Shown in pieces: positions 10,425 to 30,035 of a DNA stretch of 64,000 nucleotides. The notes under the pieces are model-generated. The model saw nothing but the letters and a program-made list of their open reading frames with translations, did no database searches and was not told where the DNA came from. Source of the DNA: Faecalibacterium langellae (GTDB taxonomy: Bacteria; Bacillota; Clostridia; Oscillospirales; Ruminococcaceae); assembly GCF_002549775.1 (NCBI RefSeq), contig NZ_NMTR01000004.1:1-64000 (forward strand). Direction: 5' to 3'. A program made the position numbers and the translations under genes. Within the stretch, counting starts at the first letter, position 1, and every line of letters begins with the position of its first letter.

Positions 10425-10520
10425 TTAGCCGAACAGACCAGACAGCAGAGGAATCAGGGTGATGCCCACCAGAGCAACGCCGCCGCCAGCCATGAGCTGC
10501 TTCATGCCCTGAGACTTTGC
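10425..10520 (-). pseudogene. maff2: maff2, 3' part (split by IME2)
   Basis: Read in frame from the junction, this segment encodes AKSQGMKQLMAGGGVALVGI followed by TLIPLLSGLFG and a stop. That is the C-terminal half of a Maff2-family membrane protein. The N-terminal half lies at 20375-20499, beyond IME2. Joining them at the shared GCAAA gives a continuous protein of about 70 residues with the family's normal length. The segment has no start codon of its own. Confidence 0.88.
10516..10520 (-). other. IME2 attachment core, maff2 3' side
   Basis: The minus-strand pentamer GCAAA occurs here and at 20375-20379, the two positions where the maff2 reading frame leaves and re-enters. The short core fits a large serine recombinase. 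Confidence 0.75.
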
Positions 10521-10606
10521 TGATGTGCGATAAAGAAGTAATAGAAGTGTAAAAAATTTTGCCGTTCCTATCCGGCACTTGGCCATTGTGTCGGATAGGT
10601 CGGGCG

Positions 10607-12226
10607 TTAGGCTTCGGGCAAGTCAATTTTGCCGACAAAGCTGTAATAAATCTCAATGTCCTGCCTGCGGGTGCCGTTCTCGTCATAGCTGCACTCATGC
10701 ACGACGATTTTCTCAATCATTTCCCGCAAGAGGGTGGGTGTCAATTCCTCAAAGGCAAGGTGCTTGCGGACAATCCCCATGAATTTCTCGGCGTTAACGG
10801 TGGCCGCCTGCGACTTGTCCAGTTCCGCCTGCAATGCGGCGGTGCGGTCTTTCAGTTCCCGCTGCTCCTGCTCATAGTCTGCCGACAGTTCCATGAAACG
10901 CTCGTCGCTGATTTTGCCGTTCACATTGTCCTCATACAGCCGCTTGATAATGCGGCTCACTTCGGCAATCCGCTCCTGCGCCTGTTCAAGCTGCTTGGTG
11001 GCTGCGGCGGTCTTTCTCTTGCCGCCGATTTCGTTCTGCTGGATCAGCAGCTTTACAAAACGGCTCTCGTGCCTGGCAGCATACTCCGTCACTTGCCGGA
11101 GATTGGAGAGGACACCGGCGGTCAGCAGGTCGGTGCGGATAAAGTGCGCCGTACAGTCGCGGGTGCGCTTCTTGTAGCTGCCGCAGATGTAACAGTCCTG
11201 CTTGCGGTTCTTGTTCTGATACCGCTGCTGGTACATCACATGGCCGCAGTCGGCGCAGAACAGCATACCAGAGAACAGCCCCACTTCGTCATAGCGGTTC
11301 GGGCGTTTGCGCTGCTTGCGTAACTCCTGCACACGCTCCCATGTTTCCGTGTCAATAATCGGCTCATGGTGGTTCTCAAAAATGGCCTGCTTCTCAATGG
11401 GATTTTCTACGCTGTGCTTGGTCTTGTAAGAGGGCTTTTCCGTCTTGAAGTTTACCAGACAGCCGGTGTACTCCCGGTTTTCGAGGATATGAACGACGGT
11501 GTTCGTCGCCCATTTACACTCATAGCCGGGGTGGTAGCGGCGTGTGCTGCCTGTCCTGCGGTATTCCAGCGTCCCCGGCGTGGGGATTTGCTGTTCCGTC
11601 AGCATACGGGCAATCTTGGTCGGGCCGTTCCCCGCAAGGCAAAGCTGGTAAATCTGCTGGACAACCGGCGCGGTTTCCTCGTCAACGATATAGTTCTCGT
11701 CCTCGTCCATGAGGTAGCCATACACCGGCTTGCTGGTAACGGGCTTGCCGCTCATGCCTTTTGCTCTTTTAACTGCCTTGATTTTCTTGCTCGTATCTCT
11801 CACCAGCCATTCGTTGAACAGATTTCGCAGAGGGGTAAAATCATTGTCCATGCCGCCGTTTGCGCTGTCCACATTGTCGTTGACAGCGATAAAACGCACG
11901 CCCTTTTGAGGGAACAGCATTTCCGTGTAAAACCCTACCTGCAAGTAGTTTCGCCCTAACCGGCTCATGTCCTTGACAATGACCGTACCAACTTTCCCGG
12001 CTTCAATGTCCGCAAGCATGGCTTGAAATCCGGGCCGCTGGAAGTTCGCGCCGGAATAACCGTCGTCGGTGTACCAGCGCAGATTGGTAAAGCCGTTCTG
12101 TTTTGCGTAGGTTTCGAGTATCCTTTTTTGGTTCGATATGGAATTACTCTCGCCTTGCAGCTCGTCCTCATGGGACAATCTCGGATAAAGGGCGGTAATG
12201 AGGTTTTGGGTGGCTTGTCTTAACAT
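10607..12226 (-). CDS. Large serine recombinase of IME2
   Basis: This 539-residue TnpX-type recombinase has a catalytic N-terminal domain (ITALYPRLSHEDELQGES, with the nucleophilic serine expected in RLS). A recombinase domain follows, then a zinc ribbon (FCADCGHVMY and CYICGSY) and a long coiled coil near residues 400-490. It sits at the maff2 3' side and should excise and insert IME2 at the GCAAA core, regenerating maff2. YPRLS instead of the more usual YxRLSR is a small variation. Related to, but clearly different from, the IME1 enzyme. Confidence 0.92.
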   Translation of the reverse strand: MLRQATQNLITALYPRLSHEDELQGESNSISNQKRILETYAKQNGFTNLRWYTDDGYSGANFQRPGFQAMLADIEAGKVGTVIVKDMSRLGRNYLQVGFYTEMLFPQKGVRFIAVNDNVDSANGGMDNDFTPLRNLFNEWLVRDTSKKIKAVKRAKGMSGKPVTSKPVYGYLMDEDENYIVDEETAPVVQQIYQLCLAGNGPTKIARMLTEQQIPTPGTLEYRRTGSTRRYHPGYECKWATNTVVHILENREYTGCLVNFKTEKPSYKTKHSVENPIEKQAIFENHHEPIIDTETWERVQELRKQRKRPNRYDEVGLFSGMLFCADCGHVMYQQRYQNKNRKQDCYICGSYKKRTRDCTAHFIRTDLLTAGVLSNLRQVTEYAARHESRFVKLLIQQNEIGGKRKTAAATKQLEQAQERIAEVSRIIKRLYEDNVNGKISDERFMELSADYEQEQRELKDRTAALQAELDKSQAATVNAEKFMGIVRKHLAFEELTPTLLREMIEKIVVHECSYDENGTRRQDIEIYYSFVGKIDLPEA

Positions 12227-12244
12227 AAAATCCTCCGTTTCTGA

Positions 12245-12297
12245 CAGCCAGCCCCACTATTCCGTGGTTTCATTGTACCACGGAACAGCGGGGGCTG
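12245..12297. repeat. Long imperfect stem-loop upstream of the IME2 recombinase gene
   Basis: The arms contain CAGCCCC...CCGTGGT and ACCACGG...GGGGCTG around a short loop, giving a hairpin of about 20 pairs with a few mismatches. It lies just upstream of the recombinase start at 12226. It could terminate upstream transcription, control recombinase expression, or bind protein. There is no T-run on the minus strand. Confidence 0.5.
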
Positions 12298-12337
12298 TAC
12301 AGCGGCAAAAGCGTTAAATTTGCTTCTTTACAGTCGG

Positions 12338-12526
12338 TCAAATTGCCGGTTTTTGCGTAGCAGCGGCTTCCGCTTCCAGTACCCGCGCCATTTTGTCGGC
12401 GGCGGTGGTCGTGGTATCTTTCTTGAAATAGCCGGACACGACAAGGACGGAATTGCCCATGCGGATTTCCGTCACGCAGTCGGGGCGGCGGGCGGTGCGG
12501 GTGTCGTGCTGCTTGTTATCTGCCAT
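12338..12526 (-). CDS. TnpW-like small transposon protein
   Basis: This 62-residue protein has the core TEIRMGNSVLVVSGYFKKD and 'TAADKMARVLEAE', similar in layout to the short TnpW-type proteins of Tn4451-like elements. IME1 has its own, more typical, version at 21497. The start at 12526 follows AAGGAG. It lies between the recombinase and the DnaC-like gene. Function unknown. Confidence 0.6.
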   Translation of the reverse strand: MADNKQHDTRTARRPDCVTEIRMGNSVLVVSGYFKKDTTTTAADKMARVLEAEAAATQKPAI

Positions 12527-12540
12527 AGGCAATACTCCTT

Positions 12541-13383
12541 TCAGTCGGTAATCAGTTTCTTCATGCTCTCCATTTTCCGCTTGGCGGTTTCCTGCCGGAA
12601 GTTGTCGCCGGTAAAGCGTACCGGGACGCACATGGAAAGCAGCCGGTCATAAATCCGGGAATGGGCGGTGTCCTCCGGGTTTCGCAGGTCGTCCAGCGTG
12701 AGGTTGGTCGTGACGATCAGCGGCTTGCCGCTGCGGTAACGGCTGTCAATCACATTGAAAACCTGTTCCAGCCCGTAGTCGGTGCCGCGTTCCATGCCAA
12801 AGTCGTCAAGGATCAGCAGCGGATAGCGGCAAAGGCGGGAAATGTACTCGTTGCGCCCCTCAAAGCTGGCGGCAAGGTCATTGAGGATCAGGGCAAAGTT
12901 CGTCATGTGGACGGGGATTTCTTTCTCCATGAGGGCGTTTGCGATACAGCCCGCAAGGTAGCTTTTCCCGGTTCCTACGCCGCCCCAGAACAGGCAGCCG
13001 ATATTGTCTGTCCGCATATCCTCCCAATGCTCCACATACCGGCGGGCAAGCCCGGCCTGCGGGTTCCTGCCGTTGTCATTCTCGAAAGTCCAGTCCCGCA
13101 TGGCGGGGTCGGTAAAGCCCCGGCGTTTCAGTTCTTCCACGGTGTCAAGGTGCCTGCGCCGCTTTTCGGCGGCTTCCCGTTCCTCGCGGGCGGTTTTCTG
13201 GCAGTCGCACTCTGCCGGGTGGCGGTCGCGCCCGAAGATAGCGGCCTTATCCGGCGCAAAATAGGCTTCTTTCGGCTTGCGGCACTTGCCGCAGTACAGC
13301 AAACCGTCCTCGCCGGTGTAGTCCTCCGGCTCCGGGGTGGTGGCCGTCATATTCTCCAAAACAGCGTTGATTTCGTTCTTCAT
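12541..13383 (-). CDS. DnaC/IstB-like helicase-loader ATPase
   Basis: The 280-residue protein has an N-terminal Cys pattern (CGKCRKPK...CDC) that may bind zinc, and a AAA+ core with Walker A FWGGVGTGKSYLAGCIANAL and Walker B LLILDDFGMER. This matches DnaC/DnaI-type loaders that place replicative helicase on DNA opened by an initiator. Its upstream partner is the replisome organizer, with a 4-base overlap (13380-13383). The start at 13383 follows AAGGAGGG. Together they suggest IME2 replicates as a circle after excision. Confidence 0.88.
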   Translation of the reverse strand: MKNEINAVLENMTATTPEPEDYTGEDGLLYCGKCRKPKEAYFAPDKAAIFGRDRHPAECDCQKTAREEREAAEKRRRHLDTVEELKRRGFTDPAMRDWTFENDNGRNPQAGLARRYVEHWEDMRTDNIGCLFWGGVGTGKSYLAGCIANALMEKEIPVHMTNFALILNDLAASFEGRNEYISRLCRYPLLILDDFGMERGTDYGLEQVFNVIDSRYRSGKPLIVTTNLTLDDLRNPEDTAHSRIYDRLLSMCVPVRFTGDNFRQETAKRKMESMKKLITD

Positions 13384-14132
13384 AAACTCTCGCCCTCCTT
13401 GCATGAGTAGTCTGGTATGCCCTTTTTCGGGGCTTTCTTAGTTGCGTCCTCCTGCGCCCATTTGTAGATGGTGGCGGCATGGCTCTTGTATCGCTTGCCG
13501 CTGGACGCGATATGGCAGGATAGCCGGTCAATGTAATAGTCCCATTTGCCGGGCAGGTCTGCTTTCAGCCCGTCCAGTTCCGATTGCGAAAGAAAAACAT
13601 TTTCATACCGGCCATAGGCGGCGCGGGCGGGTTGTCCCGTATCTAACTCTCGCTCTCTCTCTTTTTCTATCTCTTTCTCTATCTCTATCTCTGGTGGACA
13701 AATGTCCGCTTGATATGGTGGACATTTGTCCGCCCCGGCCTTTGGCAAGGCTTTCTGCTCCTGCAAAGCCAGCCTTGCCCGCCGTTTTCGCTCCCCCTCG
13801 GTAGAGGATTGGCCGATCAGTAGTTCAATGTTGCTCATATACAGTGCGCCGTTCTGTAACGGCTCCACAAGCCCCAGCTTCATAAAAATCTGCAAGGCCC
13901 GTTCTACGGTGCCGACTTGCTGACGGGTAATGGTGGCAATCATCTGCGCGGTGTAGGGGATATTTTCATCAAGCTGCAACTTCCCGCCGTTTTTCAGCGA
14001 TTTCAGGTACAGTTTCAAGAGGATGTTGGAATAGAGGATACCGTCCTGCATACTTTCCAGCAGCACAATGGCGTCCTCGTCAAAGTAATTCTCTTTCAGC
14101 TTGAGGTAGTAGTATTTTCGGTTGTCTGACAT
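13380..14132 (-). CDS. Replisome organizer / replication initiator of IME2
   Basis: This 250-residue protein starts MSDNRKYYYLKLKENYFDED, the typical opening of phage replisome-organizer N-terminal (winged-helix) domains. A low-complexity EIEIEKEIEKERERE linker follows near residue 150, then a C-terminal domain. It is expected to bind origin repeats and recruit the DnaC-like loader encoded next. The gene contains two near-palindromic repeats at 13695-13732 that are good iteron candidates, as in phages where the origin lies inside the initiator gene. The start at 14132 follows AAGGAGG. Confidence 0.85.
   Translation of the reverse strand: MSDNRKYYYLKLKENYFDEDAIVLLESMQDGILYSNILLKLYLKSLKNGGKLQLDENIPYTAQMIATITRQQVGTVERALQIFMKLGLVEPLQNGALYMSNIELLIGQSSTEGERKRRARLALQEQKALPKAGADKCPPYQADICPPEIEIEKEIEKERERELDTGQPARAAYGRYENVFLSQSELDGLKADLPGKWDYYIDRLSCHIASSGKRYKSHAATIYKWAQEDATKKAPKKGIPDYSCKEGESL
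13695..13732. repeat. Candidate IME2 origin iterons
   Basis: Two copies of the 12-bp palindrome-like block GGACAAATGTCC (13696) and GGACATTTGTCC (13720) lie 24 bases apart. Each is flanked by the same GT on the left and GC on the right. They sit within the linker-coding part of the replisome organizer gene, next to an AG-rich tract. Origin function is inference. Confidence 0.5.
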
Positions 14133-14244
14133 GGTTCCTCCTTTGGGTGGATTTGGGGTGTTTGTACGCATTTAGAACGCCGTTTCCGGGGGAAAAGGAT
14201 AAATGTATCGCGTACCCTTTGACACCCACGAAAAAAGCCTTGAT

Positions 14245-14631
14245 TTATGCGGGTTTGAAAGGCTCTAAAGCGTGACATCTCTGCCTTTGTTTCCGCTTTC
14301 TCTCGGCGGCGCGGATTTTCTTCATGCGCCCGGCGCAGTCGGGGCAGTATTTCCCCCGGTTGGATTTGGGGACAAAGGCCGCTCCGCAGACGGCACACCG
14401 TTTCCGGCTCCCCCGGTATAAGAGGGCTGCGGACAGCTCCCCGTCAAGGGGCAGGACAGCCACACGGAACCAGCGGCACATGAGGGAAAGGGAAATGCTC
14501 TGGACGCACACGCAAGGCTCCCCGTCGTCTAACAGCAGGCAGTTCCCCTCGTCGTAGTTACAGCACTCATGTACCAGCCGCCGCGCCCGCCGGTGCTGGC
14601 GGTAGTCCATGCGGGGCAGGTTATCGCTCAT
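14245..14631 (-). CDS. Cysteine-rich VLP-domain protein
   Basis: This 128-residue protein has cysteines in an N-terminal cluster (HECCNYDEGNC...CVC) and a C-terminal zinc ribbon (CAVCGAAFVPK...YCPDC), ending in a very basic tail (RAAERKRKQRQR). It matches the Cys-rich VLP proteins that accompany Tn4451/Tn1549-type mobilization genes. DNA or RNA binding is likely from the charge. The start at 14631 overlaps the relaxase stop by 11 bases. Confidence 0.75.
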   Translation of the reverse strand: MSDNLPRMDYRQHRRARRLVHECCNYDEGNCLLLDDGEPCVCVQSISLSLMCRWFRVAVLPLDGELSAALLYRGSRKRCAVCGAAFVPKSNRGKYCPDCAGRMKKIRAAERKRKQRQRCHALEPFKPA

Positions 14632-16246
14632 GGCTCTGCTCCTTTCTGCGGTGCGGCTCGTCCCGGCGCAAAATCTGGTTGATATTCCGCTTGACGGTCT
14701 GCAACTCCTTGAACCGCTGCTTCTGTTCGTGATAGGTGTTATACAGGCCGTCTTTCTCGGAGATAAGCTGCTCGATCTCGGCCTGCAACGCTTTCCGGGC
14801 GGGCAGCTTGGTAATGCCATGCGCCTTGAAATACCGGGCGGCTGCGTCGGCTATGATAAAATCGCTCTCATGGGCCTGCCGGTATGCGGCGCGGGCTTTC
14901 TCGGATTTCTGCGCTTTCAACCCGTCGCGGGCGGGCTTGGTCTGGGCGTAGGCCAACACCTGCCGCTGCAACTCCTTTTTCCCTTGCAGCTTGGTTTCCA
15001 GTGCTTTCAGTTCGCCGCTGGTCTGGCGCATTTCCGCATAGGCGGTATCAACGGCGGCTTCTAACTGCTCCGGGGAAGTAAAGCCGTACTGCTGGTAGAC
15101 GGACAGCGTTTTGGCGGCCTGCTTCAGATTGTGTATCTTCGCCCAGCGTTCATAGCCCCGGCCTTTGCCCTCGGCCATTTTCTGCTCAATGTCCACAAGC
15201 CGCTGCACTCCGTCCTGTTTGGGGGCGGTTTGAGGGGCTTTTGCGGGCTGTATGCCGCGTTTCTCCTGCCAGGGGTATTCAGGTATGGCTGCGGCCTTTT
15301 CTATGGCTCTGGCGGCATTCTGCTCCAAAACGGCAAGGACGGCGGTGCGGTCAAAATCGTCGCCCAGCTTCCGGGCGGTGATGGGCTTTGTCCTGTCCGG
15401 CGTGAGATAGGACAGCCGCCCCCGGCTCTCCTTGACGGTCACACCCTCCCGCAGCAGCAGAGAGGAAAACTCGTCAAAGCTGGCGGCGGTGGCAAGGGCT
15501 TTCCGTATGGTCTGCCGCAGCTTTTCCTTGTTCGTTTCAAACTTGGTCTGCCGGGGCGTGATACCATCGGCAATCATGGGGGCGTTCTGCTTGTCCAGCG
15601 CGGCTTGTCCCTTTTTCTGCGCCCAATACTCCCGGTCGGTGATGCGGTTCTTGCTGCCGTTCAAGAGGTCGATTTGGTAAAGCTCCTCCCGGTGGCACAT
15701 CTCCATGACTTCGGATTTGAAGTAGCGCAGGGCAGCGTCGGTACATCGGTGCTTGCAGCCGGCTTTCGTGTCGGCTGGCCTGTCCATGTAGGGCAGGAAC
15801 GGCACTTCCTCAATCCGCAGGCTGTTTATGACGATATGCACATGAATGTTGCCGCTGTGGTTATGCCCGTCCGGGTGGGTGCAGACAAGGGCTTGGTGGC
15901 CGGGGAAATGTTCTTTACAGAATTGCTCCCCCAACGCCTGCGCCCGGTCTACGGTCAGGCCGTTGTCCGGCCCGTCCCGCGGGTCAAAGCTGATGATGTA
16001 GTGGTGGCTTTTCACATCTTCCCGCCGCTGGTTTTTCTCATAGCGGAGATTGGCCCGCATACACGCAACGGCAAAATCCTCCCCGCCGCAGTTCAGCGTA
16101 GACAGCCGGTAGTCCTCGCGGGGGATAAGCCTGCCGGTTTCATCAAGGACGGGCTTCATGGTAAATTCGTCATGCTCAAAGAGCAGGTATTGTTCGGCGG
16201 CTCCGTAGTCGGCGTTTTTAGAGTTGATATGTTTGAGTGTTGCCAA
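14621..16246 (-). CDS. MOBP-type relaxase of IME2
   Basis: The 541-residue relaxase nicks oriT and pilots the strand. The three-histidine motif is visible in HPDGHNHSGNIHVHIVI near residue 130, and the N-terminal ATLKHINSKNADY matches the ICE relaxase closely. A long coiled-coil C-terminus follows. I place the start at TTG 16246: it is 5 bases after AGGTGA and aligns exactly with the ATG of the ICE relaxase (MATLKHI). GTG 16255 is the alternative. Overlap with mobC indicates coupling. Confidence 0.92.
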   Translation of the reverse strand: MATLKHINSKNADYGAAEQYLLFEHDEFTMKPVLDETGRLIPREDYRLSTLNCGGEDFAVACMRANLRYEKNQRREDVKSHHYIISFDPRDGPDNGLTVDRAQALGEQFCKEHFPGHQALVCTHPDGHNHSGNIHVHIVINSLRIEEVPFLPYMDRPADTKAGCKHRCTDAALRYFKSEVMEMCHREELYQIDLLNGSKNRITDREYWAQKKGQAALDKQNAPMIADGITPRQTKFETNKEKLRQTIRKALATAASFDEFSSLLLREGVTVKESRGRLSYLTPDRTKPITARKLGDDFDRTAVLAVLEQNAARAIEKAAAIPEYPWQEKRGIQPAKAPQTAPKQDGVQRLVDIEQKMAEGKGRGYERWAKIHNLKQAAKTLSVYQQYGFTSPEQLEAAVDTAYAEMRQTSGELKALETKLQGKKELQRQVLAYAQTKPARDGLKAQKSEKARAAYRQAHESDFIIADAAARYFKAHGITKLPARKALQAEIEQLISEKDGLYNTYHEQKQRFKELQTVKRNINQILRRDEPHRRKEQSHER

Positions 16247-16616
16247 CCGCGTCACCTACTTTCTTTAAGACTTCATACTTGAGGGCGGCAAGGTCGGCTA
16301 TGGCGGCGCGTACCTCGCCGGACAACGCATGATAGGGCGCGCCGTACTCGTTCAGATACCGGGCAATCTGGTTGAGGTTGCCGCCGATCCTGCCGTACTC
16401 GGCTGCGAGCTTCCCGACAGCGGAGAGCAGTTCGTCATTGACCGACGACACATGGAGTACGGGGCGTATGGTGGTACGCCGTATCGCCTGCCGGAGAAAT
16501 TCCGACTGGCTGATACCATAGGGCGCAAGCCGCGCTGTGAAGTCGGCGTATTCATCTTCGGTCAGCCGGGTTTTCACAACGCGGCTGCGGTGGGGTGTGT
16601 TGTATTTTTTTCGCAT
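16218..16616 (-). CDS. mobC: MobC-type relaxosome protein of IME2
   Basis: The 132-residue protein has a ribbon-helix-helix N-terminus (RVVKTRLTEDEYADF, SQSEFLRQAIRR) and the family segment GGNLNQIARYLNEYG. MobC proteins bind oriT and help the relaxase melt it. It overlaps the relaxase gene by 29 bases and lies just left of the oriT hairpins. The ICE carries a homologue at 38458. Confidence 0.88.
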   Translation of the reverse strand: MRKKYNTPHRSRVVKTRLTEDEYADFTARLAPYGISQSEFLRQAIRRTTIRPVLHVSSVNDELLSAVGKLAAEYGRIGGNLNQIARYLNEYGAPYHALSGEVRAAIADLAALKYEVLKKVGDAVGNTQTYQL

Positions 16617-17137
16617 GGTCGTGACCTCCTTTCTTGCCGCATGAGCGCGGCGGGGATAAGCGGCGCAAGCCGCATAGCAGGGTTTGGGGAAGGCACTCCC
16701 CAACAAGTTTCCCGCGAGGGGCAAAACCGCAGAATTGCGGATTTTGGCACCGTGGTAGAAACTTGCTCTCCGTGACTGCAAACTTTCTCTCACTTCCGTC
16801 CGCCACTTTTTTGGAAAACTGCAACCACAAAAGTTTGTTTCTCTTTTTCTGCTACTACTAATCCTGTAAAGGGCATTCCTGCCCGCTTTCGCTAAAATGA
16901 CACCGGACGCAGTGGTTTCTACCCGGTGTTGGAGAAATCCTTTCTCTTTGCCCTCTACTACGGGTAAATGCTCCAAATGCCAAACACCAGGGCAGAAAAA
17001 TTCCCTCCTCGCTTACTACTACAACCGGCAGGGGGCAAAATGGCCGGGAGCGGAGCCGGACAACAAAAAAAGCAGTAAATCTTTTTCAAGACTTACTGCT
17101 TTCGCTGGCCGCGTCGGTGGCGGCTGGTATTCAGTTT
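16617..17137. other. IME2 oriT region
   Basis: No gene is visible in these 521 bases. At 16660-16673 a GCGGC / GCCGC hairpin with loop GCAA is followed by AGCAGGG and a 7-bp hairpin TTGGGGA / TCCCCAA with loop AGGCAC (16676-16707). The ICE oriT at 38955-39012 has the same order, with 30 of 32 bases identical over the second motif. A further hairpin around CCGCA...TGCGG lies near 16727. Nicking is expected here because mobC and the relaxase start immediately to the left. Confidence 0.75.
17064..17100 (-). terminator. Intrinsic terminator after the IME2 HTH gene
   Basis: On the minus strand, AGCAGTAA pairs with TTACTGCT within a longer imperfect stem and is followed by seven T residues. It would end the transcript running through tet(W), the sigma-like and the HTH genes before oriT. 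Confidence 0.75.
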
Positions 17138-17350
17138 TTATGACTTGTCCGGTGGTTCGTCAAGCCGGAACTTGAATTGACAGTCAATTAACCGCTGCTT
17201 TACATAGTCCTCCACCTCGGCGTTGACCTGCCCGTTCACTTTTGAGAAATAGCGGATATATCCGGCGTAGTGGAGCAGGACAGCGTTCACGGCTTCTGGG
17301 TCGCCCTCACGGGCTTTGAGGATTGTTTCATAGGGGAGAAGTCTACTCAT
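17138..17350 (-). CDS. Small HTH-like regulator (Tn916 Orf8-like)
   Basis: The 70-residue protein MSRLLPYETILKAREGDPEA... resembles the helix-turn-helix proteins of conjugative transposons, which pair with a small sigma-like protein. It overlaps the sigma-like gene by 8 bases and precedes a strong terminator. Probably regulatory; the target is unknown. Confidence 0.7.
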   Translation of the reverse strand: MSRLLPYETILKAREGDPEAVNAVLLHYAGYIRYFSKVNGQVNAEVEDYVKQRLIDCQFKFRLDEPPDKS

Positions 17351-17624
17351 ACCGGCTCACCCCCATTTCTTCGCGTAGCCGCTGCAAGGCAAGCTGGATA
17401 TGCCGCCCCGCTGTGCTGCGTGACCGGCCAATACACGCGCCGATCACGCGCTGCGGCTGGCGCAGAAAGTAATAGCGCAGGATTTCTTCCCGCGTCTGCT
17501 CCGGCAAAACAGAGATCGCGTCGGCAAGGGCGGCGTTGCAGAGCAGGACGGTCTGACCGCAGACGGTAAATGGGTATTCCTCGTCCGGCTCCGACGCGGC
17601 AAACTGGACAAACTTCTCGTTCAT
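17343..17624 (-). CDS. Sigma-70 region 4-like regulator (Tn916 Orf7-like)
   Basis: The 93-residue protein has the pattern DAISVLPEQTREEILRYYFL followed by a second HTH part, as in the short sigma-like regulators of Tn916-type elements. Region 2 is absent, so it is unlikely to act as a complete sigma factor alone. It is downstream of tet(W) on the same strand, so tetracycline-induced readthrough could raise its expression, as known for tet(M) in Tn916. That link is an inference here. Confidence 0.72.
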   Translation of the reverse strand: MNEKFVQFAASEPDEEYPFTVCGQTVLLCNAALADAISVLPEQTREEILRYYFLRQPQRVIGACIGRSRSTAGRHIQLALQRLREEMGVSRYE

Positions 17625-17631
17625 CAGATAG

Positions 17632-17748
17632 TCAAGGGAATTGTGCGTTCTCCTCCCAGATTTTTTTACTTTCCTCTGTTCCCATGTTCTCTCCCACTCC
17701 CCAAATTTGCTTTTTTGCTTCCATTAAATCTTCCTTACTATATTCCAT
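17632..17748 (-). CDS. 38-residue peptide downstream of tet(W)
   Basis: A short frame (MEYSKEDLMEAKKQIWGVGE...) is preceded by GGAGGG at correct spacing. It resembles the beginning of short 'KEDLxEA' mobile-element proteins and may be a truncated copy of one. It lies between tet(W) and the sigma-like gene, co-oriented. No function assigned. Confidence 0.45.
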   Translation of the reverse strand: MEYSKEDLMEAKKQIWGVGENMGTEESKKIWEENAQFP

Positions 17749-17798
17749 TGTTACCCTCCATAACTTCTGATTGTTGCCGTCTTGACGATTATGTATCT

Positions 17799-19718: not shown

Positions 19719-19756
19719 GTGATTGTCCTCCCTTTACAGCCCCAAAGGGCATAAAA

Positions 19757-19791
19757 ATCCCCAGCAGTAAAATACTTTTACCACTGGGGAT
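19757..19791 (-). terminator. tet(W) leader attenuator hairpin
   Basis: On the minus strand ATCCCCAG pairs with CTGGGGAT, with further inner pairing, followed by a short T-run. It overlaps the end of the 14-codon leader frame, the arrangement known from tet(M)-type attenuation. Confidence 0.8.
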
Positions 19792-19822: not shown

Positions 19823-19895
19823 ACACCTGTTTGTGATTGCTGTTTTTGGGGATATGTCAAAATTGATAAGGCAAAAGTATTCTTAAATTGGGTAC

Positions 19896-19923: not shown

Positions 19924-19959
19924 ATCATAATCCTTTGTTCCCACTATTTGATTATAGTT

Positions 19960-21452: not shown

Positions 21453-21496
21453 AGAGACGAAAAGTCAAGGACTTTTTCATCAAATTCAAAAAGAAG

Positions 21497-21655
21497 TCAC
21501 ATTTTGCGGACTTCTTCACGGAGCATACGCTTGATTTTGTCCTCCATCGTCTCCTTGGCGGTCTCGCTGAAATGGACACGGACGATATAGGTGGTCTTGC
21601 CAATCTGCTTTCTGACAGTCGGGCAAGTGGTGGTGTTGGTTGCGGTATTGTTCAT
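21497..21655 (-). CDS. TnpW-like small transposon protein of IME1
   Basis: The 52-residue protein contains KQIGKTTYIVRVHFSETAKE and 'MEDKIKRMLREE', the pattern of TnpW proteins in Tn4451-type elements. It is the last gene before the virD4 3' junction. The start at 21655 follows AGGAGGA. No function is established. Confidence 0.75.
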   Translation of the reverse strand: MNNTATNTTTCPTVRKQIGKTTYIVRVHFSETAKETMEDKIKRMLREEVRKM

Positions 21656-21798
21656 TCAAAATCCTCCTGTAAATGAAAAAGTGCCCGGTAACTATTCATC
21701 ATCGGGCGGTGTCGGTATGAGGGAACAAGGCAAGGCGGCAACATTAAGGTATCTATAAAAACCTTGCCGTCTTTGCCACGCTTGCCGTGTTCCTGTTG

Positions 21799-23670: not shown

Positions 23671-25163
23671 CGGGATAGTTCCTCCTTTTTCTGTCGTGTT
23701 TGGGGTCGATTTTGGAGTTTTTGTTCCTCTGTGCGCTCGTTAAATCGGGCGGCAGTATCTACACATGACTTGACCTTCCAAAGGCGGTGTAAATCGTCTC
23801 TGACGGTCTTAAACTCGCCATAGGTGGTGTTGTGCGCCTGTTCCAGCTCGTCATACTCGTCGGACAGCTTTTTCATATCCACCTTGCCGTCCGGGAACTC
23901 CTCGGTCAGCTTGCGTCTGGCGGTGTAGAACATTTTCAGCTCGTCGGCGTGTTCTGCCTTGTACTTGGCTCTGGACTTCTCAAACTTGATTTTCTGCAAG
24001 CCGTCACAGACAGGCTTCAAGCTCTGGAAGGTAGCGGAGTAGTCATAAAGCCGCTTGATTTCTTTCATTCGTGCGGTCTGCCCGTCCAGCGTTTTCTTCA
24101 AGCTCTCTGTGGTGGAGCTGTGTTCATTGACATGGCTTTCCAAATCTTCAAGGGTGTAAATGCCGTTTGCCCGGAGATAATTGAAAGTCTCGTTCATCTC
24201 CTTTAGGTTGCTGATTTTGCCTTTCTGGGAATAAGCCCCGGCTTTGCGCTGGGTGTAGTAGGCGTTCAGCAGAGAAACAAGGTCGGGGGTCTGCGGCTTG
24301 GCAAGCTCTGCTTTTGCTTCGGCAATCCAATCGAACAGGAGAGTGATTTTCTTCTTGATGTCCCGGATAACGGCATTGGTGGCTTTGATCCAGCGGTTGA
24401 ACTCTCCCTTTTCGGTGCGTATGCCTTTCTTCTCCATTGCCCGGACGGTTGCGCCCTCATGGATGGTGGGAAGTAAATCCACGCCCTGCCGTTCATAGCT
24501 TCGGTGGTCGATACGGACAGTAAGACCTTTCTCCGCAAACTTGGCGTTGCACATTTCAGCCCATGTCTGCCGCCAGTGTTCCAGCGTTTCGGGACTGCCC
24601 CAGTCGGTAGTGGGAACGGCATTGAAAACAAACTCTCCGTTCTGGTCTCGGATGCGGTTGCCGTCCTCGTCCAGCGCATACACTCGGCGTTGCTTTAGTC
24701 CCCATGTGCCGTCCTGCTCGATGGGACGGATAGGACAGAGGAAATGAAAATGGGGGTTGGGTGTGCCGCCGTCCTCATGCTCCTTTTCGTGAAAGGAAAC
24801 ATCAACGGTCATGCCACGGCTCACAAACTGCTCCAACAAAAATTTCCTTGCCAGAGCGATGTTTTCTTCAAGGGAAAACTCATTCTGCAAGGAAATCTCA
24901 AAACTGTATGCAAGCTGTGCCGTCTTTCCACGCTCGGCTTTTTCCACGGCGTTCCATAGGGTCTGACGGTCTGCGTATTCTTTCGGTGCATGGGACGGCA
25001 GGAGAATGTCGGAGCATATCACGCCGCCCTTGCGGGTGTAGTCGCTGTATTCGCCATAATACTCGCTATACAATCGCTCCCCGGCACGGTAGGCGGCAGA
25101 AGCAATAGCGGACTGTCCTGCGCTTCGCTTAGTCTGCGTGACGCTCAGATGAAATAGTGCCAT
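23667..25163 (-). CDS. mobA: MobA/MobL (MOBQ) relaxase of IME1
   Basis: The 498-residue protein opens MALFHLSVTQTKRSAGQSAI and has AAYRAGERL, the typical start of MobA/MobL relaxases with the catalytic tyrosine region. Its metal-binding histidines are in GGTPNPHFHFLCPIRP near 130. The C-terminal half is coiled coil. It should nick the IncQ-like oriT at 26356-26390. This relaxase class differs from those of IME2 and the ICE, so IME1 uses an independent mobilization route. Confidence 0.93.
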   Translation of the reverse strand: MALFHLSVTQTKRSAGQSAIASAAYRAGERLYSEYYGEYSDYTRKGGVICSDILLPSHAPKEYADRQTLWNAVEKAERGKTAQLAYSFEISLQNEFSLEENIALARKFLLEQFVSRGMTVDVSFHEKEHEDGGTPNPHFHFLCPIRPIEQDGTWGLKQRRVYALDEDGNRIRDQNGEFVFNAVPTTDWGSPETLEHWRQTWAEMCNAKFAEKGLTVRIDHRSYERQGVDLLPTIHEGATVRAMEKKGIRTEKGEFNRWIKATNAVIRDIKKKITLLFDWIAEAKAELAKPQTPDLVSLLNAYYTQRKAGAYSQKGKISNLKEMNETFNYLRANGIYTLEDLESHVNEHSSTTESLKKTLDGQTARMKEIKRLYDYSATFQSLKPVCDGLQKIKFEKSRAKYKAEHADELKMFYTARRKLTEEFPDGKVDMKKLSDEYDELEQAHNTTYGEFKTVRDDLHRLWKVKSCVDTAARFNERTEEQKLQNRPQTRQKKEELSR

Positions 25164-25488
25164 CGGCTTTCTGCTCCTTTCCTCTGCTCGCTTGGTTGAT
25201 GTGGGTAATCGCCATGTGACGGACGGCTCGCTGGACTTCGGGCAGAGAAAAGATGTACTCCATCAGCTCCGTCATTTCGGTGCGTGTGAGATCTTTGAAC
25301 TCCGGGGCAAGGCTCTCAATCGTGCCGCCCAGATTGCAAAGACGGTGGGTGCGCTTTTGTCTCTCGCCTTTCTCCAGATACTTCTTTCTGTTCTCCAGAC
25401 GCTCCAGCTTGTGCTGTTCCTGTGCAAGCTGTGTCTCGACCTGTTCCTTTTCGGCTCGGAGCTGTTCAAGGTTTTTCGGTTTTGCCAT
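25129..25488 (-). CDS. DUF3847-like mobilization accessory protein
   Basis: The 119-residue protein is coiled coil at the N-terminus (LEQLRAEKEQVETQLAQEQH) followed by THRLCNLGGTIESLAPEF, typical of the DUF3847-type partner upstream of MobA/L relaxases. The start at 25488 follows GGAGGT. It overlaps the relaxase start by 35 bases. It is likely part of the relaxosome. Confidence 0.75.
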   Translation of the reverse strand: MAKPKNLEQLRAEKEQVETQLAQEQHKLERLENRKKYLEKGERQKRTHRLCNLGGTIESLAPEFKDLTRTEMTELMEYIFSLPEVQRAVRHMAITHINQASRGKEQKADGTISSERHAD

Positions 25489-25521
25489 TTTTCGTGACCT
25501 CCTTTTTTGAAAATGGGGATA

Positions 25522-25566
25522 AAAAAAGACCGTCAACTTTTCGCAGATTGCGACCAGTCAACGGTC
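25522..25566 (-). terminator. Terminator-like hairpin before the IME1 mobilization genes
   Basis: On the minus strand GACCGT and ACGGTC pair around an imperfect inner stem and are followed by seven T residues. It lies between the DUF gene ending at 25616 and the next start at 25488. Confidence 0.5.
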
Positions 25567-25615
25567 AGTTTTTCGGTATTCAGTTGTTGTGTTCAGTTCG
25601 GTAAATTGAAGTTGG

Positions 25616-26140
25616 TCAAAGTTGTTGGCGAAGATATTCCACAACATTTCCATTCGTATCATAGAAACAGATGTTTCCTACATTGAGGGGCAGGACAATG
25701 GCGAAAGGCTTGCCACTATCAATATCAATCACCTGAATGCCGTTGCCATCATCTACTTCAAGTCGAACAATATTTTGGGTATTCATTGAGATAAATGCCC
25801 TTTCGTTATTTCCCTCAACAACAAACTCTGCAATGTAATCATCAACCTCAACTATATCTCCACCACCACGGAAGAAATATCCAAAAGACAAGCCAGGGCG
25901 ATTTACATAGACAGAAAAAGTGTGGTCTGTCTTGTCCTGTGGGTAAGAAATAAATGCAGCCATTGTGTCGGAAATGCTTCCATCAACAATCCAATCATCC
26001 AAAATTTTTTGAGATTGGCGAATGTCTGCTTCTAAACTGTTTGCGGTTTTACCAATGTCATTGTTTGCATAAAGGAAACCGAAAACCAACACACAAGCCA
26101 AAATAACACCCAAGAGGATTATGGGTAATTTCTTTTTCAT
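25616..26140 (-). CDS. Membrane-anchored extracytoplasmic protein of IME1 (unknown)
   Basis: This 174-residue protein has one N-terminal transmembrane or signal segment (KKLPIILLGVILACVLVFGF), then a soluble extracellular domain with repeated beta-strand-like stretches. It is not recognised; the layout resembles DUF4830-type proteins but that is uncertain. It has an AAGGAG site just upstream. It is more AT-rich than its neighbours, which suggests separately acquired cargo. Confidence 0.65.
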   Translation of the reverse strand: MKKKLPIILLGVILACVLVFGFLYANNDIGKTANSLEADIRQSQKILDDWIVDGSISDTMAAFISYPQDKTDHTFSVYVNRPGLSFGYFFRGGGDIVEVDDYIAEFVVEGNNERAFISMNTQNIVRLEVDDGNGIQVIDIDSGKPFAIVLPLNVGNICFYDTNGNVVEYLRQQL

Positions 26141-26429
26141 AGAATCACACTCCTTTATCAAATTAAGATTCTTGATTTTCAAACTTGCTGGCGGCGAACG
26201 GTTTGTCAAAACCGTTTGCGGACGGCAAGTCCACAGGGGATAGCCGCTTTAGCGGCGCAAGGGGGTGTAGCCACCTTGACGGAACGAAGTGACGCAACAT
26301 TCTCGGTCATGCAGTTTTCTTCTGCTGACGGAGAATGAAGCTCCGCAGGACGCACTACTCTCGACAGAGAGTATAGAAGTGCGCCCTTTAGTTCCTAAAG
26401 GGGTTTTATCAGTGCGACAAACTGAAATT
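26141..26429. other. IME1 intergenic region with oriT and inverted repeats
   Basis: No gene is visible. An inverted repeat around AACGGTTT / AAACCGTT lies near 26199-26216. The oriT is annotated separately. Confidence 0.6.
26356..26390 (+). other. IME1 oriT with IncQ-type nic site
   Basis: A perfect 7-bp inverted repeat TACTCTC / GAGAGTA with loop GACA is followed 3 bases later by AAGTGCGCCCTTT. That is the nic-region sequence known for IncQ plasmids and Gram-positive MOBQ plasmids such as pIP501. The nick is expected between G and C of GTGCG/CCC. It fits the MobA/L relaxase class encoded nearby. Confidence 0.85.
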
Positions 26430-26627
26430 TTACGATTTTTTGTTTTTCAAAAAGTCAATAGTTCTTTTCACGATAAATACGATACATATCAAACCTGCAA
26501 TCCCACAAACAATAGAGTCCTTTAAGTCTGCAAATCCTCCTGTGTACTGCATTGCATAATAATAAACCGTCCATATCAGTATCAATACGAACACACTAAT
26601 ACTTAACCAATAAGACTTTTTCTTCAT
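26430..26627 (-). CDS. Small two-helix membrane protein of IME1
   Basis: This 65-residue AT-rich gene encodes two transmembrane helices (WLSISVFVLILIWTVYYYAM; SIVCGIAGLICIVFIV) with a basic tail. It follows a TGAGGA ribosome site. No family recognised. Confidence 0.5.
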   Translation of the reverse strand: MKKKSYWLSISVFVLILIWTVYYYAMQYTGGFADLKDSIVCGIAGLICIVFIVKRTIDFLKNKKS

Positions 26628-26732
26628 CTAATTTTCCTCACATTGAACTTCCGATTTGTTGCTCAATTTCGTATTCAAATTATACCATAAAACTTGTGAA
26701 CAATTCTACCGCAACTTTGGACTATATGAGAA

Positions 26733-26760
26733 AAGTCCGAACAGTTTTCTGCCCGGACTT
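26733..26760 (-). terminator. Intrinsic terminator after the TnpV-like gene
   Basis: On the minus strand AAGTCCGG and CGGACTT form a stem with a TTTTC tail, a few bases after the stop codon at 26767. Confidence 0.7.
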
Positions 26761-26766
26761 CCTCGC

Positions 26767-27111
26767 TCAATTATAAATCAACTCTGCTTTCACAACTTCC
26801 TCTGCCTGCGCCTTGCAAGCGTTCATCTGCCGCACCCATTCCATTTGGTTTTCAGCTTTCAGTTGCTCGGTCACGCCGTTTTGCTCTGCCAGTGACCGCA
26901 CGATCAGCTCCATGCGGTTTCGTGCCGCTTCGTCAATCTCGGCGCAATGCTCAAAGAACTTGTCGGATAGTACCAGCTCATTGAACAGTATCGGACGGTG
27001 CATTTTCAGATACGCCTTGCGAAGTCTGCCGTAGTGTCCGAGGGGCTTGGTCTTGCGGATAACGATGTTCGGGATAAGATAATCTCCGTTCTGTGTGTAA
27101 GCGATATTCAT
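26767..27111 (-). CDS. TnpV-like transposon protein
   Basis: The 114-residue protein MNIAYTQNGDYLIPNIVIRK with GHYGRLRKAYLKMHRP matches the TnpV-type proteins of Tn4451-like elements. Its start overlaps the recombinase stop by 4 bases (ATGA), so the two are co-translated. Its role is unknown; a recombination accessory function is plausible from its fixed position. Confidence 0.78.
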   Translation of the reverse strand: MNIAYTQNGDYLIPNIVIRKTKPLGHYGRLRKAYLKMHRPILFNELVLSDKFFEHCAEIDEAARNRMELIVRSLAEQNGVTEQLKAENQMEWVRQMNACKAQAEEVVKAELIYN

Positions 27112-28994
27112 GCTGTTTGTACTCCTTTCATCGGCTCTCTCTGCGGTAAACTGCTGACAGGGACGAACACGCCCTTTGCAATGTCCTCCGCACGAATGGC
27201 GGCTTTCTTAGCTTCAATTTCTGCCTTTTTCCGCTTCTTGATTTTGTCCTCGTATCGCTTCTGCGCTCCGCTGGCTTTCCGCTTCAAGTAGTTCTGATGA
27301 AGCCTGTCCTTGCGTTCCTCACGCTTGCGGATTTCCTCTAATTCCTCCGGGGTAAGCTCCGCTTCTCCAAACGCCGGGGGAACGAATCGCCCAACAAAAT
27401 TGAAGTAAATCTCGACCTCCTGTGTGGTCTGTATACTGCCTTTACGGTCACGCTCATGCACAAGGATTTTCTCGATAAACTCGTTGAGCATGGCAATGGT
27501 CAGCTTGTCGAAGTTCTCATACTTGTCAATCAGAGCGATAAAACGGTCAGCGTCCTTTTCGTGCTTCTCATAGCTCTTGACAGCCTTTTCCAGAACAGAG
27601 ATTTCAGCGGTAAGTTCGGACTGTTCCTTTTCGTATTGAGCGTCCAGAGTGGCGTATCTGCTGTCGGACAGCTTTCCTAAAATGTTGTCCTCATAGATTT
27701 TACAGAGCAGGACTTCCAGCTCGGAGACTCTCTGCTTTGCGGTGGCAAGGCGTGTCCGCTGTTTCTTGACCTCTGCCGTCTGCTGGCTGGACTGCGCTTC
27801 CTGCACCACACGGACAAACTCGGCTCGGTCATGCTTGGCATACTCGGCAATAGCTTTGAGCATTTCAGAGACAAGGGACAGTACCACATCTTCATTGATA
27901 CGGTGCTGTGTCGTGCAGAGCTTTCCAACTGGGACTTTGCTGTATTGGGAACAGGTATATTGAGAAATACGCTTGCCGTTGTTGGTACGGTGGACATACA
28001 TCTTGCCGCCGCAATCGGCACAATAGAGCAAGCCCGTGAGGGGAGCTGCTTCGCCCCAGCCGTCCGGGTAGCGTCTGACATTCCCACGGATTTTCTGCAC
28101 AAGGTCAAAGGTCTGCTGGTCAATGATAGGCTCATGGGTATTCTCGAAAATTGTCCATTCGTCCTCCGGGACATAATGGCTTTTCTTGTCCTTGAAGTGC
28201 TTTCGGGTCTTGAAATTGATGGTGTGTCCCAGATATTCACGCTTTTCAAGAATGTTGCAGATGGTGGAAGAACCCCAGTCGTACACATCTTTGAAAGTCT
28301 TATTCTTGTTCACACCCTCGCCGTGCTGGGCAAGGTAAGCGGACGGAATAAGCACCTTTTCCGATTTCAGTTTGCTGGCGATCTGATACGGACCGTAGCC
28401 GTCAATCGTCATGGAAAAGATACGCTTTACCACTTCGGCGGCTTCGGGGTCAACCAACCATTGGTCTCTGGCTTCATTCCAGAGATAGCCGTAAATGACC
28501 GTGCCTGTAAGGTGCTTGCCGGACTTGCCTTTGGACTGGAAAGTGGAACGGATTTTACGGCTGGTGTCTCTGGCGTAATACTCGTTCATAATGTTGCGGA
28601 AAGGGGTAAAATCATCGTCCCCTCTGGCACTGTCCACGCCGTCATTGATGGCGATAAGGCGAACGCCACGCTGACGCAGGATTTCCATAATCTGACCGAC
28701 TTTCAGATAGTCACGACCCATGCGGCTCATGTCCTTGATACACAGGTACTCCACATTCCCGGCTTCAACCTCTTTCATCATTGCCAGAAATCCGGGACGG
28801 TCAAAGCAGGTACCGCTAATGCCATCGTCCGTGAAATGGACAATGTTTGTAAAGCCCTGCCGTGCGGCGAACTCCTCCAACATAGCCTTTTGATTGGAAA
28901 TGGAATTGCTCTCACGCTGTTGGTCATCATCTTTGCCAAAGTCATCACGGCTCAGTCGTTCGTACAGAGCTGTGATTTTCTCATTTTTTCTCAT
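27108..28994 (-). CDS. Large serine recombinase of IME1 (TnpX-type)
   Basis: The 628-residue enzyme has the catalytic domain ITALYERLSRDDFGKDDDQQ, a recombinase domain, a zinc ribbon (LYCADCGGKMYV to LCTTQHR), a coiled coil, and a lysine-rich C-terminal extension. The start at 28994 follows AAAGGAG. The frame upstream is open all the way into virD4, so translation from virD4 could run through into the recombinase without a stop. It should excise IME1 at the GG core and restore virD4. Confidence 0.93.
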   Translation of the reverse strand: MRKNEKITALYERLSRDDFGKDDDQQRESNSISNQKAMLEEFAARQGFTNIVHFTDDGISGTCFDRPGFLAMMKEVEAGNVEYLCIKDMSRMGRDYLKVGQIMEILRQRGVRLIAINDGVDSARGDDDFTPFRNIMNEYYARDTSRKIRSTFQSKGKSGKHLTGTVIYGYLWNEARDQWLVDPEAAEVVKRIFSMTIDGYGPYQIASKLKSEKVLIPSAYLAQHGEGVNKNKTFKDVYDWGSSTICNILEKREYLGHTINFKTRKHFKDKKSHYVPEDEWTIFENTHEPIIDQQTFDLVQKIRGNVRRYPDGWGEAAPLTGLLYCADCGGKMYVHRTNNGKRISQYTCSQYSKVPVGKLCTTQHRINEDVVLSLVSEMLKAIAEYAKHDRAEFVRVVQEAQSSQQTAEVKKQRTRLATAKQRVSELEVLLCKIYEDNILGKLSDSRYATLDAQYEKEQSELTAEISVLEKAVKSYEKHEKDADRFIALIDKYENFDKLTIAMLNEFIEKILVHERDRKGSIQTTQEVEIYFNFVGRFVPPAFGEAELTPEELEEIRKREERKDRLHQNYLKRKASGAQKRYEDKIKKRKKAEIEAKKAAIRAEDIAKGVFVPVSSLPQREPMKGVQTA

Positions 28995-29082
28995 AACTTG
29001 CGCTCCTTTCTTCGGTTTTAGGTTGTGTGTTCTAAGAGACTTCCCAACCGCTTGATTAAGAAGTCTTTTAGAGCATACAACA

Positions 29083-30035
29083 CCGGCAGCCAGCTTGTAA
29101 AGTTTGTACTGCCGCCCGGCAAAGCTGTTTGGCTTCTTTTTTGCCAGTTCCTCAAACAGCAGATCCACCGGGTTCTGGTATTCCTCATCGTCCTCCAGCA
29201 CCTGCATGGTGTTGAGCATTTCCAACAGTGTTGCAAAATTCTGCTCCTCCACAGGGGCTTCATAATGCAGATAGGCGATCAGTGCAGTGAGCAAAAGACG
29301 TTCGCTTTTCTCCCAAAATGGATCGCCGCCGCTGCCTTCACCTTTCGTGTTGGTCATCAGGGTCGTGACCAGTTTCAGAATATCTTTTTCGCTGTGGACA
29401 TAGGCGAAGGGGTTATAGTGCATCGACTTTTTGAAGTTGATGGTGTTCAGGATCCTGACCTTGTAGCCGTTTTTCAACATTGCGTTGCCACATTCAAGCA
29501 AGATCGTACTTTTGGGGTCAGTGACCACATAGGAGCTGTGACATTGTAAAAGGTTGGGCTTGAGCCAAAACCGGGTCTTGCCGCTGCCGGAGCCGCCCAC
29601 CACCAGCACGTTTTTATTTCTCGCGTTCTTGGGGTCCGGCGGGCGATTGCTCATCATCAGCCGTTCCGTTTTGGTAAGGATGATATTGTCCTCAAACTTC
29701 GGAGCCATGAACGGCTCAATGTCCTTGGGGGTGCCCCACCGGGCTGAACCGTACTCCATGCCATGCCGGTACTTCTTGGCGTTTTTGCCACGCAGATAGA
29801 CCGCCAGTCGCAGCCCTGCGCCGCAGCATACGCCCACCAGCAAATCAAGCGGATGCAGGCTGGGCAGCGGGTTCGCAAACGCCAGCGGAACAGTGCCCAT
29901 CATGGACATGATCTTATCGCCCAGTTCCTTGCCCTCCGCAAGCCGCCATGCTTCACCAAAGTTGGTTGCCGCCAGCCCTAGCAAAATATAGGGCAGATAC
30001 AGTGCCAGCAGCTTTGTCAGCTTTTTCGTGGTCAC
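29083..30035 (-). pseudogene. virD4: virD4 (traG) coupling protein, 5' part (split by IME1)
   Basis: From ATG 30035 the segment encodes two transmembrane helices (LLALYLPYILLGLAATNF; LLVGVCCGAGLRLAVYL) and the Walker A motif VLVVGGSGSGKTRFWLKPNL. It ends at LYKLAAG, after which IME1 sequence begins. VirD4 links the relaxosome to the mating channel. The start overlaps the pcfB stop by 4 bases. Without IME1 excision no protein with both Walker motifs can be made. Confidence 0.92.

What the first reader, a model, noticed from the sequence alone, without database searches (positions are those of the whole stretch)
10425..30035. Two serine-recombinase IMEs sit in consecutive essential transfer genes of one ICE and lock it
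virD4 and maff2, neighbours in the ICE, are each split by an IME whose ends share only a short core (GG for IME1, GCAAA for IME2). On paper, removing both restores a virD4 of about 588 codons and a maff2 of about 70 codons, in frame. While both are present no complete coupling protein or Maff2 can be made. The ICE should therefore be unable to transfer itself or its passengers until both excise. This is a layered dependency in which the parasites control their own vehicle.
Basis: partly seen in the sequence, partly recalled or inferred. Interest (0 to 1): 0.88.

Follow-up and report, generated by a model that had tools for sequence, protein, structure and literature searches.

The report
Two hitchhikers nested in one ICE
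A conjugative element in a gut Faecalibacterium carries two smaller mobile elements, one with a tetracycline resistance gene, each sitting in a conjugation gene; this nesting is an already described kind and is common in the genus, but the ends of the smaller elements suggest a promoter that forms only when they circularise.

Summary
A Tn1549/CTn4-type ICE in a Faecalibacterium genome has virD4 split by IME1 (21451-29082, Tn4451/Tn6104-like) and maff2 split by IME2 (about 10516-20376, an IME_Rho_tet with a tet(W)-type gene). Mapped separately onto intact relatives, the halves meet with a 2-bp overlap (GG; AA, so GCAAA is over-long). The arrangement, and the idea that excision re-opens the ICE, are in print (Coluzzi 2017, Guedon 2017; IME_Rho_tet in MAFF2, 2026). 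Of 71 Faecalibacterium modules, 19 have a virD4 IME, 31 a maff2 IME and 11 both (8.3 expected, Fisher p 0.18): two busy sites rather than a built lock. The same genome has an intact virD4-maff2 module on another contig, and published ICEs with IMEs in maff2 and snf2 still transferred. New here: virD4 has four IME sites; where found, the recombinase always reads with virD4; and in 16 of 16 scored elements a -35 at the right end and a -10 at the left end lie exactly 17 bp apart across the circle joint. That suggests a circle-only promoter, as reported for Tn4451, though in the window's own copy the integrated state scores no worse. Excision itself was not tested.

The parts
29083..30035 (-). virD4 5' part up to and including the GG core
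   Evidence: Pfam T4SS-DNA_transf 36-205; NCBIfam conju_CD1115 1-207; maps to intact relatives
21451..29082 (-). IME1, 7632 bp, Tn4451/Tn6104-like
   Evidence: span; recombinase 27108 to about 28994, TnpV 26767-27111, MobQ relaxase 23667-25163, TnpW 21497-21655
27108..28994 (-). IME1 large serine recombinase, start about 89 nt behind the left crossover, in frame with the virD4 5' part
20637..21452 (-). virD4 3' part from the GG core
20375..20499 (-). maff2 5' part up to the AA core
   Evidence: Maff2 profile 1-42
10516..20376 (-). IME2, about 9.86 kb, IME_Rho_tet type (the span includes both copies of the AA core)
   Evidence: recombinase 10607-12226, IstB/DnaC-like 12541-13404, replisome organiser 13380-14171, relaxase 14621-16255, MobC/NikA-like 16218-16976, HTH 17138-17350, sigma-like 17343-17624, resistance gene 17799-19718; ends
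17799..19718 (-). ribosomal-protection tetracycline resistance gene, tet(W) type (exact allele not tested)
   Evidence: NCBIfam NF033148 (TetM/TetW/TetO/TetS family) 1283 bits, cut-off 1100
10425..10517 (-). maff2 3' part from the AA core
   Evidence: Maff2 profile 40-70
9345..10211 (-). ICE TrbL/VirB6-like gene behind maff2
6601..8994 (-). ICE VirB4-type ATPase (name recalled)
   Evidence: ORF; 55% identical to its counterpart in the intact C78 module
30032..30499 (-). ICE DUF3801 gene in front of virD4

Best explanation
Two independent integrative and mobilizable elements have used two of the regular landing sites of one Tn1549/CTn4-type ICE. While they sit there this ICE cannot make its own whole VirD4 or Maff2 (shown by sequence). 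Each should leave precisely by its own serine recombinase, which would re-open the gene (inferred from the 2-bp cores, intact relatives and the TnpX family). For IME1 the likely control is as follows: when integrated, the recombinase lies directly behind the virD4 5' part on the same strand and can be read from the ICE's own transfer transcript; when circular, the right end supplies a -35 and the left end a -10 that together form a promoter for the recombinase, favouring re-integration in the donor or the recipient (inferred from conserved ends; reported for Tn4451). IME2 has its recombinase at the far end and no such -35, so its trigger is unknown. The double insertion is a common coincidence of two busy sites, not a purpose-built lock.
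For: Clean 2-bp junctions against intact relatives. Mobility of IME1 apart from its ICE: 6.3-6.8 of its 7.6 kb at 93-94% identity in Oscillibacter valericigenes An860 (L020) and two other Faecalibacterium genomes (G029, G015); virD4 parts relative to one intact reference are 67/83% (L020), 92/97% (G029), 57/67% (G015) and 90/91% (window). Four virD4 sites (about codons 97-100, 173-176, 315-318, 507-510) used by different IMEs. TTGAC close to the crossover at 29 of 30 distinct right ends at these sites (the miss is G009_C62 at site 176). -35/-10 best pair exactly 17 bp apart across the joint in 16 of 16 elements scored, and in a 17th that the script had failed to parse; scores 9-12 of 12; 9 or more in 2.5% of random pairs and 11.7% of shuffled ends, 11 or more in 0.005% and 0.12%. 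Eight further left ends from Agathobaculum, Gemmiger and Pseudoflavonifractor (picked from 37 matches): the hexamer TATGCT stands at the expected place in 7 of 7 that could be parsed, and the recombinase follows on the same strand in 8 of 8. Recombinase co-oriented with virD4 in 20 of 20 elements with a recombinase hit, and with maff2 in 11 of 11. Double insertion 11 of 71 against 8.3 expected.
Against: No excision, transcription or transfer was measured. In the window itself the virD4 DNA happens to supply a fair -35 (TTTACA, spacer 18) for the IME1 -10, so the promoter score is 9 of 12 both integrated and circular; the same hexamer occurs in 5 of 9 site-318 loci. In site-510 elements the recombinase is not the first gene behind the joint. 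Elements at one site share ancestry, so 16 of 16 is about seven lineages, and the 8 further loci have recombinases 72-99% identical to that of IME1, so their match may be descent. Swapping ends between sites at a fixed 17 bp gave 6-10 where the split differs, which overlaps the weakest true pairs, and 10-12 where it is the same (part of the pairs shown). An IME in an S. suis ICE did not excise though its ICE moved (PMC7168690).
Confidence: 0.6

Rival explanations
1. One reading: the two IMEs together hold the ICE shut and decide when it moves.
For: Both genes are open only if both elements leave; virD4 is a coupling protein gene. Coluzzi 2017 and Guedon 2017 propose excision on induction of the ICE.
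Against: No significant excess of double insertions (11 of 71, p 0.18). An intact related module exists in the same genome. ICEs with IMEs in maff2 and snf2 transferred (PMC5704250, PMC7168690). The two IMEs carry relaxases of different Pfam families; shared control was not looked for.
Confidence: 0.2
2. The ICE is a dead landing pad: the insertions are effectively permanent and the IMEs move with the help of other conjugative elements.
For: Other ICE-like loci of this genome look decayed: C11 has only the virD4 5' part followed by a recombinase, C76 has a virD4 cut at codon 510 and a partial virB4. C78 is a possible helper.
Against: Both virD4 halves and both maff2 halves in the window are open and collinear with intact relatives; but IME1 has moved recently (93-94% identity in other ICEs), so lack of decay is weak evidence.
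Confidence: 0.3
3. Assembly artefact: contigs joined wrongly at repeated IMEs.
For: Draft genome of 78 contigs with several related IMEs; the window begins at a contig end.
Against: IMEs at the same sites, doubles included, occur in single-contig genomes (G014, G027, G028; virD4 alone in G029), and the core is exact.
Confidence: 0.03

Closest known systems
IMEs in traG, maff2 and snf2 of Tn5252-superfamily ICEs of streptococci (Coluzzi 2017, PMC5357655; Guedon 2017, PMC5704250)
   Same: Serine-recombinase IMEs inside virD4 (two sites) and maff2 (two sites) of an ICE, 1 to 3 per ICE; excision on induction proposed
   Different: Here four virD4 sites in Faecalibacterium and relatives, joint promoter at the ends, co-occurrence counted
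Tn6103 with Tn6104, Tn6105 and Tn6106 in C. difficile (PMC3158075)
   Same: Three IMEs in the conjugation module of one ICE, two in one gene (Tn6104 listed in traG in the table of PMC5704250); Tn6104 has TnpX-like and TnpV-like proteins, a mobA/mobL gene and a 2-bp repeat, and its excision was seen
   Different: Other cargo; here the maff2 element is IME_Rho_tet with a tetracycline resistance gene
IMEs in traG, a membrane protein gene and a COG4646 gene of Tn1549-related ICEs of S. suis (PMC7168690)
   Same: Same ICE family and same kinds of target gene
   Different: Different host; no sequences compared here
IME_Rho_tet (PMC12904643)
   Same: Gene set, MAFF2 target, 3' boundary about 89 nt behind the recombinase stop (81-90 in the paper), 5' boundary about 656 nt in front of the resistance gene (about 656 in the paper)
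   Different: No feature found that sets IME2 apart; the paper does not name Faecalibacterium in its main text
Tn4451/Tn4453 joint promoter for TnpX (Lyras and Rood 2000; title seen in the reference list of PMC13023037, content recalled)
   Same: Large serine recombinase next to the end; promoter formed by circularisation
   Different: Here inferred from sequence only, for elements with four fixed target sites in one gene

Membership tests
IME_Rho_tet | relaxase, mobC, serine recombinase and ribosomal-protection tet gene together | tested here: met
IME_Rho_tet | 3' boundary 81-90 nt behind recombinase stop; 5' boundary about 656 nt from tet(W) | tested here: met
   about 89 and 656 nt; paper values read
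IME_Rho_tet | 21-bp terminal inverted repeats | tested here: met
   17 of 21 letters agree by eye between the two ends; not compared with the published motif
IME_Rho_tet | recombinase at least 85% similar to the R. hominis copy | not tested
   the reference protein was not fetched
Tn4451/Tn6104-type mobilizable elements (IME1) | large serine recombinase, TnpV, TnpW, MobA/MobL (set partly recalled) | tested here: met
Tn4451/Tn6104-type mobilizable elements (IME1) | 2-bp target duplication | tested here: met
   GG
Tn4451/Tn6104-type mobilizable elements (IME1) | circular form and TnpX-driven excision | not testable with these tools
   needs DNA of the strain
Tn1549/CTn4 (Tn5252 superfamily) ICE | CD1115-family VirD4, with DUF3801, Maff2, TrbL_2 and VirB4 in this order (order recalled) | tested here: met
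   the two VirD4 parts match conju_CD1115 at 267.5 and 231.8 bits, cut-off 250 for a whole protein, so one part alone is below it
Tn1549/CTn4 (Tn5252 superfamily) ICE | integrase and both ends | tested here: inconclusive
   the window starts at a contig end; no integrase of the ICE among the ORFs tested

The most novel reading that the evidence does not exclude
The virD4 gene of these ICEs is a recombination switch with four sockets. IMEs are kept in the sense orientation so that the ICE's own transfer transcript turns on their recombinase and re-opens the gene, while a promoter that exists only in the circle (always 17 bp, wherever the crossover cuts it) turns the recombinase on again to re-insert. 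Conjugation of the ICE would thus trigger release of its passengers, not the reverse.
Probability: 0.3. Interest if true: 0.65.

Novelty: new member of a known kind. Interest (0 to 1): 0.45.

Why it matters
It shows that nesting of IMEs in conserved ICE genes is frequent in a major human gut genus (39 of 71 modules have at least one in virD4 or maff2), and it offers a directly testable switch for when passengers leave their vehicle, among them IME_Rho_tet, to which 68% of tet(W) copies were linked in PMC12904643.

Tried and rejected
First region request failed for being one base too long and was repeated with 20,000 bases each. Pattern search of 394 genomes for the site-318 right end is void: I wrote one N too many, and the own genome gave no hit; not repeated. 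A specific association of the two insertions was tested and not found (p 0.18). L137/L139 (partial upstream copies), L064 and L069 (group-II-intron-like inserts in virD4) and L121 (unclear truncation) were not used as IME cases; L128 has such an insert too but also a site-173 right end, and is counted for that. Apparent breaks elsewhere in virD4 (for example L023, L026, L027, L042, L046) were not studied.

Rows dropped before the 71: no maff2 found (L121, L145, L161, L168, L169, L171), virD4 cut by a contig end (L098, L109), decayed own loci C11 and C76; two short matches of G013 (C5, C29) were not fetched. L111 was moved by hand from 'maff2 only' to 'both', because a frameshift hid its right end from the script (10, 8, 21, 32, p 0.28; after: 11, 8, 20, 32, p 0.18); own C1 was added by hand. 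The script labelled L170 maff2 as intron; its sequence is that of an intact gene, which does not change the counts. The 30 right ends count L014/L113 once and leave out L046 and L165. Two recombinases on the opposite strand (L151, L105) lie outside the split genes and are not in the orientation counts; partial recombinase hits (L164, own C1, G009_C62, G012_C16) are. Where in the shared letters the crossover falls is not certain: with TG instead of GG at site 100 its split is 12+5, and at site 176 the shared stretch is longer; the sum of 17 does not depend on it. Structure prediction was not used.

Literature basis: PMC12904643 (abstract, first part of Results, passages), PMC5704250 (section 3.5 whole, passages), PMC3158075 and PMC7168690 (abstract, passages), PMC5357655, PMC13239906 and PMC13023037 (passages). 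Four virD4 sites and a joint promoter for virD4 IMEs were not seen in the listings nor in the passages read; subscription papers are not held.

Full report
What is there. The window is the start of a 261-kb contig of a 2.8-Mb draft genome; the nearest named loci are Faecalibacterium. From about 0.3 to 38 kb it holds a conjugative module on the minus strand: relaxase (36951-38495), RepA_N, ParA- and ParB-like genes, DUF3801, virD4, maff2, TrbL, a PrgI-like gene, VirB4, NlpC/P60, topoisomerase (the ParA, ParB, PrgI and VirB4 labels are recalled).

Junctions. The 5' and 3' pieces of each gene were mapped separately onto intact relatives. For virD4 they meet with a 2-bp overlap, GG, in 7 distinct loci (L010, L011, L013, L099, L101, L108, L112) and also in L009, whose contig begins inside the gene; for maff2 the overlap is AA. 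An intact virD4 has 588 codons and an intact Maff2 71 (L010). The halves were not joined.

What the elements are. IME1 (7632 bp) has a large serine recombinase, TnpV, MobQ relaxase and TnpW, like Tn4451 and Tn6104. IME2 (about 9.86 kb) fits IME_Rho_tet in genes, target and both boundary distances; 116 of 256 recreated integration sites in that study were MAFF2 genes. IME1 moves apart from its ICE: 6.3-6.8 kb of it are 93-94% identical in Oscillibacter valericigenes An860 and two other Faecalibacterium genomes with differing virD4 genes.

How common. The C half of virD4 was searched in 31 genomes of the genus, the own included; 19 have matches at E up to 1e-30, and 76 stretches were fetched besides those of the own genome (two short matches left out). 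IMEs occur at four virD4 sites, near codons 97-100, 173-176, 315-318 and 507-510, and at two maff2 sites, besides group-II-intron-like inserts in both genes. Of 71 modules that could be judged for both genes (own C78, own C1 and the window included), 11 have IMEs in both, 8 in virD4 only, 20 in maff2 only, 32 in neither; expected both 8.3, Fisher p 0.18, odds ratio 2.2 (one row moved and one added by hand). Outside the genus the site-318 right end also occurs in L020, L033, L034, L041, L080 and L082, and L082 carries a maff2 IME as well. So the double insertion is frequent and is roughly what two independent sites would give.

The rest of the genome. Besides the window there are four virD4 loci. 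C78 has an intact virD4-maff2-TrbL-PrgI-VirB4 module. C1 has virD4 split at codon 510 by a 13.1-kb element and two maff2 copies, each split by an IME_Rho-like element, one of whose recombinases is broken. C11 keeps only the virD4 5' part before a recombinase in the 40 kb looked at. C76 has virD4 cut at codon 510 and a partial virB4. Hence this ICE cannot make its own coupling protein while IME1 is in place, but the cell can make a related one.

A possible switch. At 29 of 30 distinct right ends at the four virD4 sites a TTGAC lies close to the crossover (the miss is at site 176 of G009_C62). In all 16 elements scored, the best -35/-10 pair across the circle joint is exactly 17 bp apart (15 to 19 allowed), with scores of 9-12 of 12; a 17th element, which the script had failed to parse, also gives 17. 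As scored, the crossover divides the spacer as 13+4, 16+1, 12+5 or 6+11; the exact place within the shared letters is uncertain (site 100 becomes 12+5 with a TG core), but site 510 clearly differs from site 318. Random pairs reach 9 in 2.5% and 11 in 0.005%; shuffled ends in 11.7% and 0.12%. Swapped ends at 17 bp score 6-10 where the split differs and 10-12 where it is the same. Elements at one site are related, so about seven lineages stand behind the 16. In eight further left ends from other genera, picked from 37 matches, the -10-like hexamer stands where expected in 7 of 7 parsed cases, with the recombinase next, same strand, in 8 of 8; these are relatives of IME1. In the six elements of sites 100, 176 and 318 looked at, the recombinase starts within about 100 nt behind the joint; at site 510 it does not. 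When integrated, the gene supplies a -35 of 2-5 matches in 6; the window is among five of nine site-318 loci with 5 (TTTACA, spacer 18), so in the window the predicted promoter is not weaker when integrated by this score. The IME2 right end shows no TTGAC in its last 100 nt, nor does a second IME_Rho-type right end in the stretch seen, in line with their recombinase lying at the other end. In 20 of 20 virD4 elements and 11 of 11 maff2 elements with a recombinase hit the recombinase reads in the direction of the target gene; orientation is fixed per site, so this is evidence from about six site types only.

Mechanism. Most likely: ICE transcription through virD4 makes IME1 recombinase, IME1 leaves, virD4 is whole, and the circle's own promoter then favours re-insertion. 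Shown: the split genes, the exact cores, the conserved ends and orientation. Inferred: excision, read-through, promoter activity, any effect on transfer.

ICESp2905 moved with IMEs in maff2 and snf2, and an S. suis ICE moved at about 2 x 10^-3 without detectable excision of its SNF2 IME (PMC5704250, PMC7168690); neither concerns virD4. Tn6103, with three IMEs in its conjugation module, circularised but its transfer was not demonstrated (PMC3158075). The proposal that ICE induction frees the IME is in PMC5357655 and PMC5704250.

Verdict. A real and cleanly confirmed case of a known kind, common in the genus, with a resistance gene as cargo. The lock reading is possible for virD4 but not shown, and the pair is not more than two busy sites. 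The joint promoter with a fixed 17-bp spacer across four sites is the part most worth testing.

Noticed in passing
G000 contig C1 (L087 and L092): A second ICE of the same genome has virD4 split at codon 510 and both of its two maff2 copies split by IME_Rho-like elements, one with a broken recombinase.
   Followed up: partly
L064, L069, L128 (virD4); L106, L114, L119, L132, L144 (maff2): Inserts with group-II-intron-like ends lie in the same two genes (label recalled from their end letters, not tested with Rfam).
   Followed up: no
27108-30035: The virD4 5' part and the IME1 recombinase form one open frame of 975 codons; whether a fusion protein is made is unknown.
   Followed up: no
G016 contig C17; G017 C1 near 0.88 Mb; G027 C1 near 0.54 Mb: Single virD4 genes that seem to carry insertions at two or more sites at once.
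   Followed up: partly
G000 contig C11 (L090): Decayed relative of the window ICE (DUF3801 95%, ParA-like 91% identical) with only the virD4 5' part left, followed by a recombinase.
   Followed up: partly
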